This document shows positions 6,265-11,951 of a stretch of DNA of 40,778 bases, piece by piece (positions within the stretch are counted from its first letter, which is position 1; each line of letters begins with the position of its first letter). The translations under genes were made by a program, and so were the position numbers. Origin of the DNA: Synechococcales cyanobacterium 340R_concoct_173_sub (GTDB lineage: Bacteria; Cyanobacteriota; Cyanobacteriia; Leptolyngbyales; Leptolyngbyaceae); assembly GCA_025354065.1 (NCBI GenBank), contig JANXNM010000392.1, positions 1 through 40,778 on the forward strand. The letters are read 5' to 3'. The notes under the pieces were generated by a model. That model saw nothing but the letters and a program-made list of their open reading frames with translations. It searched no databases and was not told the DNA's origin.

Positions 6265-7515
6265 TCAGCATCTAGACGTTTTCATCCCTATCCGTGAACC
6301 TAAAGCAATCCCTAATCCAGCAAATAGAAAGACGATCGTCGTTATCAAAATCGAACCCGAAGTAGAAAGCATTGTAGCTGACTTGGGGACTAGATAGCCG
6401 AGCAGTGCGATCGCCCCTGACATCCCACCAAAGAAAACACCCACAATCAACCCACTCAAAGACTTTGGCACCATCGTGAGAGCGAAAGGTACCATACCAT
6501 TGTTTACCGCACTCAACCCCATCAAAATCAATGACAAAATGATTACTGATCCGATCGCCCCCATATTCAACGACCATAGCCCCAAACCTGCGGAAATAGT
6601 TCCTAAGCTGATGATCATCAATGTCCGGTTAGAAATGAATTGCGAAACTTTCCCGGTCCCGATCGCAAACAATGCTTGAATGATCAAGATCAATCCCAGA
6701 CAAATTTCAAATGATAAACCTGTAAATGCATTAATGTCAGCCTTGAGAATGCGCGGGATTAAATCACTCATCAGTAATTTTGTTCCTAATCCCAGCATTG
6801 CACCCACCCATAAAACTATTGCAATGGGTTTTAAAAAGGCATTAATAGACCAAGATTCCATGGGTTCTAAATCAGTTTTCACCTGTTTGGGAAGCTCCAT
6901 CATCGTCGATCGTAAACTCGCGAGACAAATTAGAAATATGATTGAAGAAATAGCAAAGGTTAAAGGTGCGCCCAGACTCACAATGAAGTCTGTCGCCAAA
7001 GGTTTGATCGCCGCAACCAATCCACCCACAACGGTCAAAGCTGCCGCAGCTAACGGTAATTGATTGGCTGTTGATATGTTTCCCAGCAAACTGAGGACCG
7101 GACTCCGAAAGGTGGCCATGACGATCGACCATAATACGGCTAATCCTAAGAGCAAACTTTGGGTTATGGCATTTGATCCACCAAAGATGACAAGACAAGG
7201 CAAACCCATCAATAAAAGGGTTGAACCGATCGCACTCACGAGAATGAAGGAAACTTTTGAACCATACAAACGTTGTAACCGATCGGACAGGCTCCCGAAA
7301 AATGGTTCTACCAAGAGTCCGATTGCGCTTTCAATTACGAGAATTAATGCGGTTAATTTCTGAGCATCATTGTTGGAATAGGCAAATACTTGTTCAATGA
7401 ATTTCGGTAAATAAATATTGTAAGCAATCCAAGCCAAGGACATAGAACCCTGGACTGCCGCCAAACTAAAGACTTGTCGCCAACAAATTTGATTCGAGGA
7501 TAAAGATTTTGACAT
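6265..7515 (-). CDS. Major facilitator superfamily (MFS) transporter
   Basis: A 416-residue polytopic membrane protein with about 12 hydrophobic segments. Motif A appears as GSLSDRLQRLYG after the second helix (about residue 65-75), typical of MFS carriers. The overall pattern resembles SLC45-like/sugar-porter-type MFS proteins common in cyanobacteria, but the substrate is not evident. I chose the ATG at 7515 (MSKSLSSNQICW). The frame continues to a GTG at 7542, only 3 bases from the hemJ stop. With the ATG start the gap from hemJ is 30 bases, consistent with a hemJ-MFS operon. Many frames on the opposite strand are open here only because of hydrophobic codon use. Confidence 0.85.
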   Translation of the reverse strand: MSKSLSSNQICWRQVFSLAAVQGSMSLAWIAYNIYLPKFIEQVFAYSNNDAQKLTALILVIESAIGLLVEPFFGSLSDRLQRLYGSKVSFILVSAIGSTLLLMGLPCLVIFGGSNAITQSLLLGLAVLWSIVMATFRSPVLSLLGNISTANQLPLAAAALTVVGGLVAAIKPLATDFIVSLGAPLTFAISSIIFLICLASLRSTMMELPKQVKTDLEPMESWSINAFLKPIAIVLWVGAMLGLGTKLLMSDLIPRILKADINAFTGLSFEICLGLILIIQALFAIGTGKVSQFISNRTLMIISLGTISAGLGLWSLNMGAIGSVIILSLILMGLSAVNNGMVPFALTMVPKSLSGLIVGVFFGGMSGAIALLGYLVPKSATMLSTSGSILITTIVFLFAGLGIALGSRIGMKTSRC

Positions 7516-7545
7516 AATGCTTAGGCATGAGATTTTAAACACCCG

Positions 7546-8154
7546 CTAAGCTTTCATTTGTTTTGGAAGAACGATCGGACTCTCTGCATCAGCATTCATC
7601 AAGTTCTTCTTCTCAGCATCCAAACGCCGCTTGCGGGCATAGAGTTGAATACTTGCAGCAAATGCGATCGCCATCCCAAAGACAACATAACTTGTGGCAT
7701 TGGTGGGAATATCATTTTTGAAAATAGCCAACATCACAATCACTACTAAAAAGAACGTCGGAAATTCATTCATCCAACGAAACTGTTTAGACGTAAGCGG
7801 CATTTCCCCTGCCTCCATTTGGCGAATGATCTTGCGACAATAAAAATGGAAGCCCACCAACACCAACACCAAGCCCATCTTCACCTGCAACCAAGTCTGC
7901 TGCAATAAATCAGGTGCGATCGTCAACATTGCCACTGCCATCACAATTGTTACCACCATGGCCGGAGTCATAATGATGCCGTAGAGCCGCTTTTCCATCA
8001 AGGTGAACTGCGTCTTTAAAATGCTGCGGGCGGGTTCCACCTGTTGCTCGTGGGCCTCTGCATGGTAAACAAACAATCGTGGTAGATAAAAAAGCCCCGC
8101 AAACCACGAGACAAACCCCACGATATGAAACGCTTTAAACCAAAAGTACGGCAT
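7546..8154 (-). CDS. hemJ: Protoporphyrinogen IX oxidase HemJ
   Basis: A 202-residue membrane protein of the HemJ (UPF0093/CopD-like) family. In most cyanobacteria it converts protoporphyrinogen IX to protoporphyrin IX, the last step shared by haem and chlorophyll synthesis. The N-terminal motif FHIVGFVSWFAGLFYLPRLF followed by VYH is diagnostic; His10 is the conserved helix-1 histidine associated with haem binding. Further membrane segments lie around residues 58-80, 84-103, 127-143 and 152-170. The C-terminal 30 residues are charged. The downstream MFS gene follows within 30 bases and may share its transcript. Confidence 0.92.
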   Translation of the reverse strand: MPYFWFKAFHIVGFVSWFAGLFYLPRLFVYHAEAHEQQVEPARSILKTQFTLMEKRLYGIIMTPAMVVTIVMAVAMLTIAPDLLQQTWLQVKMGLVLVLVGFHFYCRKIIRQMEAGEMPLTSKQFRWMNEFPTFFLVVIVMLAIFKNDIPTNATSYVVFGMAIAFAASIQLYARKRRLDAEKKNLMNADAESPIVLPKQMKA

Positions 8155-8275
8155 GGTGATGATGTAAAAGAACTGCTACAGATCAAAAAACCCAAGATAC
8201 AAATGCATCCTGAGTTTTATTAAACGGGAAAACGGGTGTTCCCTAAAGCGTTTCTCCGCTCACATTCACGTTTCG

Positions 8276-8467
8276 TTACACTAGGCAAGTTTCTCGGCTC
8301 ACTGGAGTTATGAGGTCTTCTGACGGACCTTGATTTAAAAAGAGCGAAATCGCTACGCAAATTGCACGATCTTGGTCCCAATCTGGGTTCTTCTCAATGT
8401 ATTGAGCCAATTCAATGTGAAGGGTTTCGGGAAGCTCGGCAAGCAGGGAAATGGTGGGAAACATCAT
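8276..8467 (-). CDS. DUF2811 family small protein
   Basis: A 63-residue protein with ISLLAELPETLHIELAQYIE and NPDWDQDRAICVAISLFLNQ, matching the cyanobacterial DUF2811 pattern (ISLLxEIPxxLHxxLxxYLExHPxWDQDRxxxxALSLFLxQ). The structure is probably two or three helices, perhaps a ribbon-helix-helix-like fold. Function unknown. Two adjacent ATG codons (8467, 8464) are possible starts. The gene borders the 0.7-kb non-coding region with the DnaA-box cluster and is transcribed away from it. Confidence 0.75.
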   Translation of the reverse strand: MMFPTISLLAELPETLHIELAQYIEKNPDWDQDRAICVAISLFLNQGPSEDLITPVSRETCLV

Positions 8468-8715
8468 AAAATAAAACCTTTACTCAAGCACTAAGTGTGA
8501 CGATTTTCAAAACAGAAACTAACACCCACTGATGCAATCAACCCTAGAAATAACGACTTCCCATATCTTTTCACAGTAAGTCGTATAAGTTGGTGGTCGA
8601 TTGGTAGACCGAATTCTCGCACCGCTCTGAGTGTTTGTAGAGCGTATATTTACTTGTGCTATTTAATACATTATGTCTCTACGAATACATTCATGATAAA
8701 TTTATCCCTACGTAC

Positions 8716-9100
8716 TGTGGAAAACGTTCTAAATGTGTTTTAGAGGGGTATTATTTAGTGGAGTCTTGAGTAATTCAAATGTATTAAAATCGCCAAAAGT
8801 CTTTTGTGGAAAGGATTTTGAGCTTTTTGATCCGAGACAGATGATTAGAGTAATAAAGCTCTATCTTGTGGGAATCGATCGGTTCGCATCATTGAATACA
8901 ATCGCAGTCAGCGTTGCCCTGTGGAAAACTCTTCGTAGTCTGTGGAAAACACAGGATGGATGTGGAAAGATTTAAAAAATGTAGGAAAAATCTCTGCCTA
9001 AAGCAAGAAATCTCAAGTTGCCGATTGTTAACTTTGAGCAATGTCATACAGTGTTAACTAAAGTTTTGCTACTTTTTAGTTAAACAAACGTAACTGTATA
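8716..9100. other. Candidate chromosomal replication origin (oriC): DnaA-box cluster plus AT-rich tract
   Basis: TGTGGAAAA, the complement of the cyanobacterial DnaA box TTTTCCACA, occurs exactly at 8716-8724, 8920-8928 and 8941-8949. One-mismatch copies TGTGGAAAG lie at 8805-8813 and 8961-8969, and weaker ones at 8867-8875 (TGTGGGAAT) and 8980-8988 (TGTAGGAAA). All have the same orientation. The last four are spaced 21, 20 and 19 bases apart, about two helical turns. An AT-rich stretch follows (about 8970-9105) with two TGTTAACT copies and a related TTAGTTAAAC, a plausible unwinding element. The region carries no credible gene. dnaA and dnaN are not in the window, which is not unusual in cyanobacteria. 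Confidence 0.6.
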
Positions 9101-9133
9101 AAAAATCCTGGACACCAAATATTGCGCCAGGAT
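9099..9133 (-). terminator. Rho-independent terminator of prmA
   Basis: Read on the minus strand, ATCCTGG pairs with CCAGGAT across a 15-base loop (arms 9127-9133 and 9105-9111), followed by ATTTTTTATA. It lies about 65 bases past the prmA stop codon. Confidence 0.75.
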
Positions 9134-9196
9134 GTTGATTGAATCATTAAGTCGGTGGTGAGGGACTACAGGTTAATCTAGTTAGCCTTAATCTAG

Positions 9197-10090
9197 TTAG
9201 TTAATCCGGCGGATATTTAAACAACACCAGTCGCCTCGTTTCCAGAGCGCGGACACAAACCAACCATTCTCTTCCAGAACATCCGTCACGGCCTTGGCTT
9301 GGTCTAGCAGAACACCACTTAGGATGCCCCAGGTTTCTGGCTTAGTGAACGGCTCCCACTCGGGAATCAGCTCCACAATCACATGGGCCAAAATATTGCA
9401 GACAATGCCCTCGACGGGTTCAGGAATCATGTCCACAATGACTTCGACGCTGCCTTCAGCCACCTCAAGCCGCAACGGATCGATGCTGTTGAGTGTTATG
9501 TTTTCCTGCGTTGCTTTCACCGCCAATGGATCTGTATCAACCGCGTAGGCTTTTCTTGCGCCCAATAGCAATGCGCCCACGGACAAAATCCCCGAACCAC
9601 AACCAATGTCGGCGATCGTAGTCAATTCTGGATTTTCGCCCAATCGCATTTCTAGCGCTTCAAGACAAAGTTGCGTGGTGGCATGGTCTCCCGTACCAAA
9701 GGCCACTCCGGGTTCTAGCTTAAGAATGGTCCGATCGGTATGTTCTGGCAATGGCAACCAAGCGGGATGAATAAGGAGACGATCGCCCACATTTTGCGGC
9801 TTCCAATAGGCTTTCCAGCCGCTGGCCCAATCTTCCTCGTCGATTAACTGCCACTGAATCGACGGCTCCCCAGCTTCAAAACATAAGGCATCTTGTTTGA
9901 CTTGTAATGCGAGGGCCGACAGGTCCAAAACATGAGACGACACTTTCGGGACATAAGCTGCAATGATCGACGAATTCCCTTCTCGCTGACTGGACATTCC
10001 TTTACAGCCAAACATTTCCAGTCGCCAAAACATTGATTCTTCTAGTACCGCTTCACATAAAATCTGGATTTCCCACCAACTGTTTGTCAT
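9197..10090 (-). CDS. prmA: Ribosomal protein L11 methyltransferase PrmA
   Basis: A 297-residue SAM-dependent methyltransferase that trimethylates ribosomal protein L11 on several amino groups. The N-terminal domain (about residues 1-90) begins [12 protein letters not shown], as in the L11-binding domain. The linker has the family motif FGTGDHATT at 131-139, followed by the SAM site [11 protein letters not shown] at 160-170 and the post-I acidic residue in AVDTDPLAV. The catalytic-domain motif [12 protein letters not shown] matches the NI-A motif. The ATG is preceded directly by two copies of a 14-base repeat rather than a Shine-Dalgarno sequence. serA lies upstream on the same strand, separated by a MITE-like repeat. 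Confidence 0.95.
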
Positions 10091-10118
10091 GAAGAATTGA
10101 GAATGAAGAATTGAGAAT
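10091..10118. repeat. Two tandem copies of GAAGAATTGAGAAT abutting the prmA start
   Basis: The 14-mer GAAGAATTGAGAAT occurs at 10091-10104 and again, identically, at 10105-10118, followed by a partial third unit (GAA). The first copy touches the prmA start codon, so the repeat forms the end of its leader. The heptameric sub-structure resembles short tandemly repeated repetitive sequences of filamentous cyanobacteria. Confidence 0.8.
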
Positions 10119-10194
10119 GAAAAGGTGCAGTTTGATGACGATCGATCGTGATTAAAACAGCGTTTGAAAAGTCTTTGCGTTGATATTACAAAGA

Positions 10195-10317
10195 CCCGAT
10201 CCCCCCAAATCCCCCTTGATAAGGAGGACTGAAAATTGAATTCTAAATCCTCATTTTTAAGAGGAACTAAGTATTAAATTCCGGTTCCCCCTTCACAAGG
10301 AGGCTAGGGGGATCGGG
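10195..10317. repeat. MITE-like repeat with 11-bp terminal inverted repeats
   Basis: The 123-base element begins CCCGATCCCCC (10195-10205) and ends with the exact complement GGGGGATCGGG (10307-10317). Inside each end lies a sub-hairpin, CCCCCTTGATAAGGAGG and CCCCCTTCACAAGGAGG. There is no coding capacity. The sequence style (CCCCCxAAATCCCCCTT...AAGGxGGxTAGGGGG) is that of non-autonomous repeats widely scattered in cyanobacterial genomes. I see no clear target duplication. It separates serA from prmA and could act as a transcriptional barrier or RNA hairpin. Confidence 0.8.
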
Positions 10318-10364
10318 CCGTAAGCATCACAACTTTTGACTAATTAGACTAATTAATTGACTAA

Positions 10365-11951
10365 CTACAGCGTCACCGTGTAGGCATCGCGAATTCCAGC
10401 CACTTTCGTAATTTCAGCCACCGTGTTCTCAGGCAACGGATCATCCACCGTCAACACCATCACCGCATCCCCACGAACAATCTTACGCCCCACTTGCATA
10501 CTGGCAATATTGACATTCAAATCACCTAAGAGTGATCCAATCCGGCCAATGATTCCCGGCATATCGCGATGCAGCGTAAATAGCATGTATTTACTAGGCG
10601 GAACGTTGATAGGAAATTCATCAATGCTAATGATCTGCATTTCCTGATGACCTAAGAGCGCACCACTCACTGAATGTTCACCCAAAGAACCTTTAGCGGT
10701 TAACATCATGGATCCGGTGTAGTCCTGAATTGACTCGTCACGGGTCTCAATGACATGAATGCCGCGTTCTTTAGCCTCAATGCTGGCGTTTACAAAGTTT
10801 ACTCGCTCATGCAATGCACTCGATAACAAGCCTTTTATAGCCGCAATCACGATCGGTTGGCTTTGGTTTGTCGCCAGTTCGCCGCGCAACGAGACCGTCA
10901 GAGATTCAATGCGTCCGCCTGCGAGTTGGCTGACCATGTTGCCTAGGGTTTCCGCCAGTTGCAAGTAAGGCTTGAGCGCTTCCAAGACATCGGGACGCAG
11001 TCCGGGAATGTTGACAGCGCTGCGGGCAGGTTTGTCGAGTAAGACATCGCGAATTTGTTCCGCCACATCGATCGCAACGTTAACTTGTGCTTCTTCCGTG
11101 GAGGCTCCTAAGTGGGGGGTCAGAACCAGTTCCTTACCAACGCTCCGCAAGGGCGATTCGCCTAGAGGTTCGCTTTCAAAAACATCTAGTGCAGCCCCAG
11201 CAATCCGGCCTTCAGAAACAGCCGCTGCGATCGCTGCTTCATCGATAATTCCACCTCGGGCGCAGTTGATGATTCGCACTGTAGGTTTCATTTTTGCGAT
11301 CGATTCTGCATTAATCAGATTGGCTGTTTCAGGCGTTTTGGGAATGTGTAACGTAATGTAATCAGAATCCCGCAGCAGCGTCTCCATTTCCACCAGCTTG
11401 CAACCGAGCTGGTCGGCCCGTTCTTTCGAGACAAATGGGTCATAAGCCAGCAGCACCATGCCCATGGCTTTTGCGACTGTGGCGACATGCGCCCCGATTT
11501 TCCCAAGACCCACAACGCCCAGCGTCTTTTTATAAACTTCCACGCCCGTATAGCTTTTGCGGTCCCATTTCCCTGCTTTCATTGACGCATTCGCCGCCGG
11601 AATAAAGCGAGACATAGACATCATCATCGCTAACGTATGTTCTGCTGCCGCAATGGTGTTGCCTTCGGGGGAGTTGACGACAACAATACCTTTACGAGTG
11701 GCGGCTGGGACATCGACATTATCGACCCCGACTCCGGCCCGTCCGATTATTTTAAGTTTCTTGCCAGCTTCGATGACCGATGCGGTTACACGAGTTCCCG
11801 ATCGAATCATCAGGGCATCATAGTCTCCGATACAGGCCACCAGCGCCTCAGGAGACAGACTGGTATTGACATCAACGTGTGCGACCTGGGAGAGAATATC
11901 AATCCCAACTTGATCGATCGGATCGGAAACAAGAACCTTCATCATGGCCAA
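10365..11951 (-). CDS. serA: D-3-phosphoglycerate dehydrogenase SerA
   Basis: A 528-residue NAD-dependent enzyme making 3-phosphohydroxypyruvate, the first committed step of serine synthesis. It is the long, type-1 form. The substrate domain has SGTRVTASVI and RAGVGVDNVD (about residues 51-80), the Rossmann loop is GLGKIG at 148-153, and the catalytic residues are Arg232 (ARGG), Glu261 and His280 (TPHLGAS). An allosteric-substrate-binding-like domain follows (about 320-450) and then a C-terminal ACT domain (about 455-528, with LFTLHRDMPGIIGRIGSLLG). The start could be any of three nearby ATGs (M1, M3, M4). The serA-prmA order on one strand matches that in other cyanobacteria such as Synechocystis. 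Confidence 0.96.
   Translation of the reverse strand: MAMMKVLVSDPIDQVGIDILSQVAHVDVNTSLSPEALVACIGDYDALMIRSGTRVTASVIEAGKKLKIIGRAGVGVDNVDVPAATRKGIVVVNSPEGNTIAAAEHTLAMMMSMSRFIPAANASMKAGKWDRKSYTGVEVYKKTLGVVGLGKIGAHVATVAKAMGMVLLAYDPFVSKERADQLGCKLVEMETLLRDSDYITLHIPKTPETANLINAESIAKMKPTVRIINCARGGIIDEAAIAAAVSEGRIAGAALDVFESEPLGESPLRSVGKELVLTPHLGASTEEAQVNVAIDVAEQIRDVLLDKPARSAVNIPGLRPDVLEALKPYLQLAETLGNMVSQLAGGRIESLTVSLRGELATNQSQPIVIAAIKGLLSSALHERVNFVNASIEAKERGIHVIETRDESIQDYTGSMMLTAKGSLGEHSVSGALLGHQEMQIISIDEFPINVPPSKYMLFTLHRDMPGIIGRIGSLLGDLNVNIASMQVGRKIVRGDAVMVLTVDDPLPENTVAEITKVAGIRDAYTVTL

What the first reader, a model, noticed from the sequence alone, without database searches (positions are those of the whole stretch)
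8716..9100. Candidate oriC: phased, same-orientation DnaA boxes beside an AT-rich tract
Seen: three exact TGTGGAAAA sites, two one-mismatch sites and two weaker ones, all in one orientation. The last four are 21, 20 and 19 bases apart, followed by an AT-rich region with repeated GTTAAC words. Known: cyanobacterial DnaA prefers TTTTCCACA and bacterial origins combine phased boxes with an unwinding element. Inference: this is the chromosomal origin or a DnaA-titration locus. I noticed no other exact TGTGGAAAA outside this 0.25-kb stretch by eye. The spot lies between a DUF2811 gene and prmA, not near dnaA or dnaN.
Basis: partly seen in the sequence, partly recalled or inferred. Interest (0 to 1): 0.8.

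Follow-up and report, generated by a model that had tools for sequence, protein, structure and literature searches.

The report
DnaA-box array upstream of DUF2811
This is very probably not the place where the chromosome starts to copy itself; it is a row of binding sites for the copying-starter protein DnaA that nearly all cyanobacteria examined keep in front of one small unstudied gene, and that is missing in the few genomes where DnaA was not found, so the starter protein probably also controls that gene.

Summary
In detail: three exact, two one-mismatch and two weak DnaA boxes lie in one orientation at 8716-8988; 0 of 500 shuffles of the window gave such a cluster. The oriC reading is not supported: in the nearest held genome, G001, boxes in both orientations sit between adjacent dnaA and dnaN. 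The window's cluster is a separate one.

It belongs to a class-wide element. DUF2811 is in 143 of 146 Cyanobacteriia genomes. In 110 DUF2811 loci the upstream kilobase holds 217 exact boxes, against 5 downstream and 3 for the reversed motif, mostly 11, 21 or 22 bp apart. In 49 of 110, TTGACA follows 178-184 bp after a box. In one family, three genomes without a DnaA match keep gene and promoter but no box, while all six with DnaA have boxes.

Best reading: a DnaA-responsive control region of DUF2811 (sometimes with hemJ), inferred from sequence alone. A titration site remains possible. The window's own copy has no TTGACA within 1 kb. Ten capped literature searches showed no description of it.

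The parts
8716..8724 (-). DnaA box, exact TTTTCCACA (proximal)
   Evidence: exact in the window and all four same-genus homologues
8805..8813 (-). DnaA box, one mismatch (CTTTCCACA)
   Evidence: kept in G003, altered in G001, G002 and G004
8867..8875 (-). weak box, two mismatches (TGTGGGAAT on +)
8920..8928 (-). DnaA box, exact
   Evidence: exact in all five same-genus sequences
8941..8949 (-). DnaA box, exact; 21 bp from the previous
   Evidence: TTTTCCCCA in G003 and G004
8961..8969 (-). DnaA box, one mismatch (CTTTCCACA); 20 bp from the previous
   Evidence: identical in all five same-genus sequences
8980..8988 (-). weak box, two mismatches (TGTAGGAAA on +); 19 bp from the previous
8276..8467 (-). 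DUF2811 gene (PF10929), 63 aa; the array lies about 250-520 bp upstream of its start, in the same orientation
7546..8154 (-). hemJ (UPF0093, PF03653; the name HemJ for this family is recalled), the next gene on the same strand
   Evidence: HemJ match near 28 of 110 class DUF2811 loci, 26 of them downstream on the same strand
8614..8672 (-). block strongly conserved in the genus between array and gene; candidate promoter or leader start (inference)
   Evidence: alignment A1; no exact TTGACA in 1 kb upstream in the window or in the 725-1000 bp held upstream in the four relatives
8990..9110 (.). AT-rich tract with two GTTAAC words, not kept in G001 or G004; not shown to be an unwinding element
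9197..10090 (-). prmA, flanking gene

Best explanation
The cluster is an extra-origin DnaA-binding array in the control region of DUF2811 (here followed by hemJ). Several DnaA molecules bind the boxes, which share one orientation and are mostly spaced about one or two helical turns apart, and form a directional complex. That complex changes the activity of the promoter downstream, so the gene reads the level or nucleotide state of DnaA. Shown by sequence: the boxes, their phasing and orientation; their presence in front of DUF2811 in 28 of the 31 cyanobacterial families sampled (29 if other members of f34 are counted); TTGACA at about 180 bp in many genomes; and absence of the boxes in the three genomes found without a DnaA match. 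Inferred: DnaA binding in vivo, an effect on transcription, and its sign (activation, repression or cell-cycle gating). At this copy in the window's genus the TTGACA promoter is not recognisable; a different conserved block (8614-8672) lies about 45-100 bp past the proximal box.
For: (1) 110 DUF2811 loci in 104 genomes and 31 families: 217 exact boxes in the upstream kb, 199 on the gene's strand, against 5 downstream and 3 for the reversed motif; 96 of 110 have at least one exact box. Shuffles of the same stretches give 1.5 on average, at most 4 in 50 shuffles. Two or more boxes at up to one mismatch occur in 28 of 31 families. (2) Replication on 80 loci chosen by the tool, the best 80 of 448: 76 had at least 600 bp upstream, 70 of these had an exact box; 141 exact upstream, 3 downstream, 0 reversed. 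(3) 196 of 241 neighbouring same-strand distances up to 60 bp are 11, 21 or 22 bp. (4) TTGACA lies 178-184 bp after a box in 49 of 110 loci, against 0-15 with boxes shifted by six amounts, although promoter-to-start distance varies from about 65 to 386 bp in loci with arrays. (5) Family f34: 6 of 6 genomes with DnaA have boxes (G165 only one-mismatch ones), 3 of 3 without a DnaA match have none at up to one mismatch, while TTGACA and its flanks remain. (6) In 14 of 16 genomes with two or more examined DUF2811 copies, every examined copy has an array. (7) Distance to dnaN is not conserved.
Against: No binding or expression data exist here. Five genomes with DnaA showed no array (two boxes at up to one mismatch within 60 bp) at the copies examined: G032, G082, G126, G128, G132; only one copy each was examined in G126, G128 and G132, which have three. 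L279 (Baaleninema simplex PCC 7105, DnaA not tested) also has no box. In G014 and G021 one DUF2811 copy lacks an array. G012 keeps a box cluster beside hemJ with no DUF2811 found there (L005), which control of DUF2811 does not predict. An array 180 bp upstream of -35 is far for a direct contact, 61 of 110 loci do not show TTGACA at 178-184 bp, and helical phasing of the distance is weak. The window's own copy lacks the canonical promoter. G162 is only 85% complete, so its missing dnaA may be a gap.
Confidence: 0.6

Rival explanations
1. A datA- or DBC-like site: the array titrates DnaA or promotes ATP-DnaA hydrolysis, and its place before DUF2811 is incidental.
For: Multiple boxes outside oriC in most genomes examined; further arrays exist, for example 3' of guaA in 9 of 30 loci; G012 has a box cluster with no DUF2811 beside it. 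Removing all six B. subtilis DBCs gave early initiation (PMC5295017, passages).
Against: Distance to dnaN looks uniform (dnaN is only a proxy for oriC), whereas datA keeps its relative distance from oriC in E. coli (PMC4585315, passages). The array goes with DUF2811 copies (14 of 16 genomes) and often keeps about 180 bp to a promoter.
Confidence: 0.25
2. The array mainly controls hemJ (protoporphyrinogen oxidase), with DUF2811 as a passenger in the transcript.
For: hemJ follows in the window and in 26 of 110 loci on the same strand; G012 keeps a box cluster near hemJ without DUF2811.
Against: 82 of 110 class loci have no HemJ match in the stretch fetched, about 1.5 kb each side where the contig allowed, and second DUF2811 copies away from hemJ have arrays too.
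Confidence: 0.06
3. It is the chromosomal origin, or a second origin.
For: Phased boxes beside an AT-rich tract.
Against: dnaA-[boxes]-dnaN in G001; GTTAAC words not kept in G001 or G004; one-orientation array tied to a gene at widely varying chromosomal positions. GC skew could not test it: irregular in the closed relative G018.
Confidence: 0.03
4. Another protein with the same 9-bp motif, not DnaA, uses the array.
For: No binding data.
Against: The motif is the cyanobacterial DnaA box (PMC4674748, passages and one section) and is absent upstream of DUF2811 in the three genomes without a DnaA match.
Confidence: 0.05

Closest known systems
DnaA-regulated promoters (E. coli DnaA regulon)
   Same: DnaA boxes upstream of a gene; E. 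coli DnaA prefers pairs 2-3 bp apart (PMC11317965, abstract), that is 11-12 bp start to start, one of the spacings found here
   Different: Here mostly 21-22 bp, often three or more boxes, far upstream, often about 180 bp from a promoter and kept across a bacterial class; no regulation shown
E. coli datA
   Same: A non-oriC cluster of several DnaA boxes (five in datA, PMC4585315, passages)
   Different: datA has an IHF site and a conserved distance from oriC; here the distance varies and the element is tied to a gene
E. coli DARS1/DARS2
   Same: Core of three DnaA boxes (PMC4585315, passages)
   Different: DARS2 needs IHF and Fis sites; neither was searched for here
Bacillus subtilis DnaA-box clusters (DBCs)
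   Same: Box clusters outside oriC; removal of all six gave early initiation (PMC5295017, passages)
   Different: Conservation, phasing and promoter link as seen here were not compared
Cyanobacterial oriC at dnaN
   Same: Same box TTTTCCACA (PMC4674748, passages and one section)
   Different: The oriC clusters seen here have boxes in both orientations beside dnaN; the window's has one orientation beside DUF2811

Membership tests
Chromosomal origin oriC | Cluster of species-type DnaA boxes | tested here: met
Chromosomal origin oriC | Beside dnaN or dnaA, as in most cyanobacteria (dnaN in 55 of 68 species, PMC4674748) | tested here: not met
   Neighbours are DUF2811, hemJ and prmA; the dnaA-dnaN cluster is elsewhere in G001
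Chromosomal origin oriC | GC-skew minimum | tested here: inconclusive
   Own genome not held; skew of relative G018 irregular over 40 samples
Chromosomal origin oriC | Conserved AT-rich unwinding element | tested here: inconclusive
   AT-rich tract present but GTTAAC words not kept in G001 or G004; unwinding not testable
datA (DnaA inactivation or titration site) | Several DnaA boxes outside oriC | tested here: met
datA (DnaA inactivation or titration site) | Conserved relative distance from oriC | tested here: not met
   31 loci in 29 one-contig genomes of the class, KS against uniform p = 0.98. dnaN stood for oriC, seven chromosome lengths were rounded, and other one-contig genomes and some second copies were left out
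datA (DnaA inactivation or titration site) | IHF site and ATP-DnaA hydrolysis | not tested
   No IHF scan made; activity needs the bench
DnaA-regulated promoter | DnaA boxes upstream of the gene, kept with it | tested here: met
DnaA-regulated promoter | Recognisable promoter linked to the boxes | tested here: inconclusive
   TTGACA 178-184 bp after a box in 49 of 110 loci; absent at the window's copy and its four homologues
DnaA-regulated promoter | Boxes depend on DnaA | tested here: met
   Array in 0 of 3 genomes without a DnaA match against 107 of 112 with one; not corrected for shared ancestry
DnaA-regulated promoter | Expression changes with DnaA | not testable with these tools
   needs an experiment
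Ribbon-helix-helix regulators (for DUF2811) | Strand-helix-helix fold or sequence match | tested here: inconclusive
   Models of low confidence (mean pLDDT 63.5 and 53.0); no RHH family among the weak Pfam matches of 11 members; no PDB sequence match

The most novel reading that the evidence does not exclude
DUF2811 is a cyanobacterial replication regulator whose expression is set by DnaA through this array, closing a feedback loop: a class-wide counterpart, in role not ancestry, of regulators such as Hda, YabA or SeqA (recalled). An RpaB-type HLR1 site between array and promoter would add a light signal.
Probability: 0.2. Interest if true: 0.85.

Novelty: new variant of a known kind. Interest (0 to 1): 0.7.

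Why it matters
How cyanobacteria, several of them polyploid and some DnaA-independent, use DnaA is an open question. A near-universal DnaA-box array in front of one uncharacterised gene names a concrete DnaA target to test. It suggests that DnaA has a conserved job as a gene regulator beyond starting replication, which could help explain why species that do not need DnaA for replication (Synechocystis PCC 6803, Synechococcus PCC 7002; PMC7198777, passages) still keep it; I did not test those two species by name. It also warns that origin prediction from DnaA boxes alone could land on this element.

Tried and rejected
oriC: rejected on synteny, not on GC skew. Forty 20-kb samples of closed relative G018 gave an irregular cumulative skew with no clear V, so that test is uninformative; the window's own skew is also mixed.

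Helical phasing of the box-to-promoter distance: the Rayleigh value peaks near 10.25-10.5 bp but is weak for distinct values (R about 0.33, 20 values). Not claimed.

RNA element: an Rfam scan of 7500-10500 gave one match, E 0.28 and far below its gathering score, at 10193-10321, outside the interval.

Literature: ten searches, mostly seen as listings. Two were weak: the term datA also matched 'data', and asked for five of six terms and returned nothing. Absence from print is therefore only as good as these.

Dropped rows and choices: the 110 loci are the 30 best DUF2811 matches plus 80 that I picked by hand from the printed (cut) list, after I had seen the box-pair list; I skipped several second copies, some further genomes and some loci already held, so this is not a random sample. 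The 40 places were also hand-picked. L103 (265 bp upstream, no box) stayed in the 110-locus counts but was dropped. Four of the 80 named loci were dropped for short upstream DNA. G148 lacks matches for DUF2811, DnaA, DnaN and GuaA and was not used. In one search, eight genomes (G005, G009, G012, G013, G014, G020, G021, G024) were counted as DnaA-positive without a DnaA search: with them 115 of 120 against 0 of 3 (Fisher p = 1.9e-4), without them 107 of 112 against 0 of 3 (p = 2.3e-4). Neither value is corrected for shared ancestry. L229 (Halothece MAG) is probably the same assembly as G162 and is not counted as independent. I did not reach the named dnaA-less species: they were not among the 80 loci.

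Full report
What is there. On the minus strand at 8716-8988 there are three exact TTTTCCACA boxes, two with one mismatch and two with two mismatches, all in one orientation, the last four 21, 20 and 19 bp apart. No shuffle of the window gave a similar cluster (0 of 500). The genes around it, all on the minus strand, are prmA, then (past the array) a 63-aa DUF2811 gene (8276-8467), then hemJ/UPF0093.

Not the origin. The window's own genome is not held. The nearest, G001, has 64 exact boxes against 16 for the reversed motif. Only two places there have exact boxes within 300 bp of each other: the homologue of this locus, and C94, where four boxes in both orientations lie between dnaA and dnaN. 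In G002 and G003 an exact box pair also follows dnaA. The AT-rich tract is real, but its GTTAAC words are not kept in G001 or G004, while the boxes at 8716, 8920 and 8961 are identical in all five same-genus sequences. GC skew could not decide.

A class-wide element. Box pairs occur in 117 of 146 Cyanobacteriia genomes; the reversed pattern occurs in 3. Of 40 places that I picked from that list, 12 lay by DUF2811, 11 by dnaN, 9 by guaA and 8 by none of these. DUF2811 itself is in 143 of 146 genomes and, among 14 control genomes, only in S. elongatus. In 110 DUF2811 loci (104 genomes, 31 families) the upstream kilobase holds 217 exact boxes, 199 of them on the gene's strand, against 5 downstream and 3 for the reversed motif; shuffles give 1.5 on average. 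Two or more boxes at up to one mismatch occur in 28 of the 31 families; f9, f30 and the f34 member sampled lack them, though other f34 members have them. Of 241 neighbouring distances, 196 are 11, 21 or 22 bp. A separate set of 80 loci, chosen by the tool, repeats this: 70 of the 76 usable have an exact box. The guaA array is less widespread: 9 of 30 loci.

Linked to a promoter. The commonest shared words upstream of DUF2811 in 72 genera are the box and a second motif around CATTGACA, found in 37 of 72 genera, where the commonest shuffled 8-mer reaches 7; others are GCGATCGC, AATTCTTA and GTAACAAA. CATTGACA reads as a -35 element followed by CACAATGATGCGACC-like sequence. TTGACA lies 178-184 bp after a box in 49 of 110 loci, against 0-15 when boxes are shifted, while the distance from promoter to start codon varies. 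An HLR1-like repeat, the RpaB site (KTTACAWW-N2-KTTACAWW, PMC13421787, passages), occurs at up to one mismatch in 27 of 110 loci, reversed control 0; in 14 of the 18 where the distance could be taken it is 88-90 bp before the TTGACA word. In the window this copy has no exact TTGACA within 1 kb upstream, nor have its four same-genus homologues. The second DUF2811 copy of G001 has weaker boxes (no exact one on its strand) and one exact inverted box.

Tied to DnaA. In family f34, nine genomes have DUF2811 and six have DnaA. All six have boxes, G165 only one-mismatch ones; the three without a DnaA match (G154, G164, and the 85% complete G162) have none at up to one mismatch. The alignment shows that all three keep the TTGACA promoter region while the box block is gone. 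Over all examined genomes, 107 of 112 with a DnaA match have an array at one or more copies, against 0 of 3 without (caveats under Tried and rejected). That dnaA can be lost in free-living cyanobacteria is known (PMC7198777, abstract and passages).

Mechanism. Position in front of one gene, orientation with the gene, presence at paralogues (14 of 16 genomes), an often steady promoter distance and a uniform spread of distances from dnaN favour transcriptional control by DnaA over a free titration site. Against this stand the exceptions listed, G012, which keeps a box cluster by hemJ without DUF2811, and the lack of any experiment. In S. elongatus, DnaA binding to oriC depends on light and photosynthesis (PMC6478999, passages), so the gene could report growth conditions; this is inference.

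Known or not. I found no paper on DUF2811 (0 papers) and no listing that describes this array in the library searched. The cyanobacterial DnaA ChIP that I saw in passages was ChIP-qPCR at oriC. Box clusters outside oriC and DnaA-controlled promoters are known kinds; a class-wide, promoter-linked array of this form appears to be a new variant.

Noticed in passing
L021, L026, L033, L043, L045, L048, L049, L053, L056; guaA loci L168-L197: A second recurrent array: mostly three boxes 20-22 bp apart just 3' of guaA, pointing at its 3' end; present in 9 of 30 guaA loci.
   Followed up: partly
L019, L027, L031, L037, L039, L040, L055: Further box arrays at varied, apparently lineage-specific places, for example between a DPBB-domain protein and an NDH-2 subunit gene (L019) or beside a cation-efflux gene (L037).
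   Followed up: partly
L005 (G012): Box cluster beside hemJ with no DUF2811 detected next to it.
   Followed up: partly
G154, G164 (family f34): Genomes listed as 99% complete with no match to the DnaA C-terminal domain; possibly unreported dnaA losses.
   Followed up: partly
L035 (G044:C1:2841765): Box pattern that looks like the oriC one but about 1.3 Mb from dnaN; the origin may have parted from dnaN there.
   Followed up: no
L058-L167, mostly 88-90 bp before TTGACA: HLR1-like (RpaB) repeat between the array and the DUF2811 promoter, 27 of 110 loci.
   Followed up: partly
several class loci (L093, L097, L105, L122 and others): An inverted box 44-46 bp from the nearest box in the gene's orientation, 26 of 41 inverted boxes counted.
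   Followed up: no
G148: A one-contig genome listed as 99% complete in which DUF2811, DnaA, DnaN and GuaA all fail to match; cause unknown.
   Followed up: no
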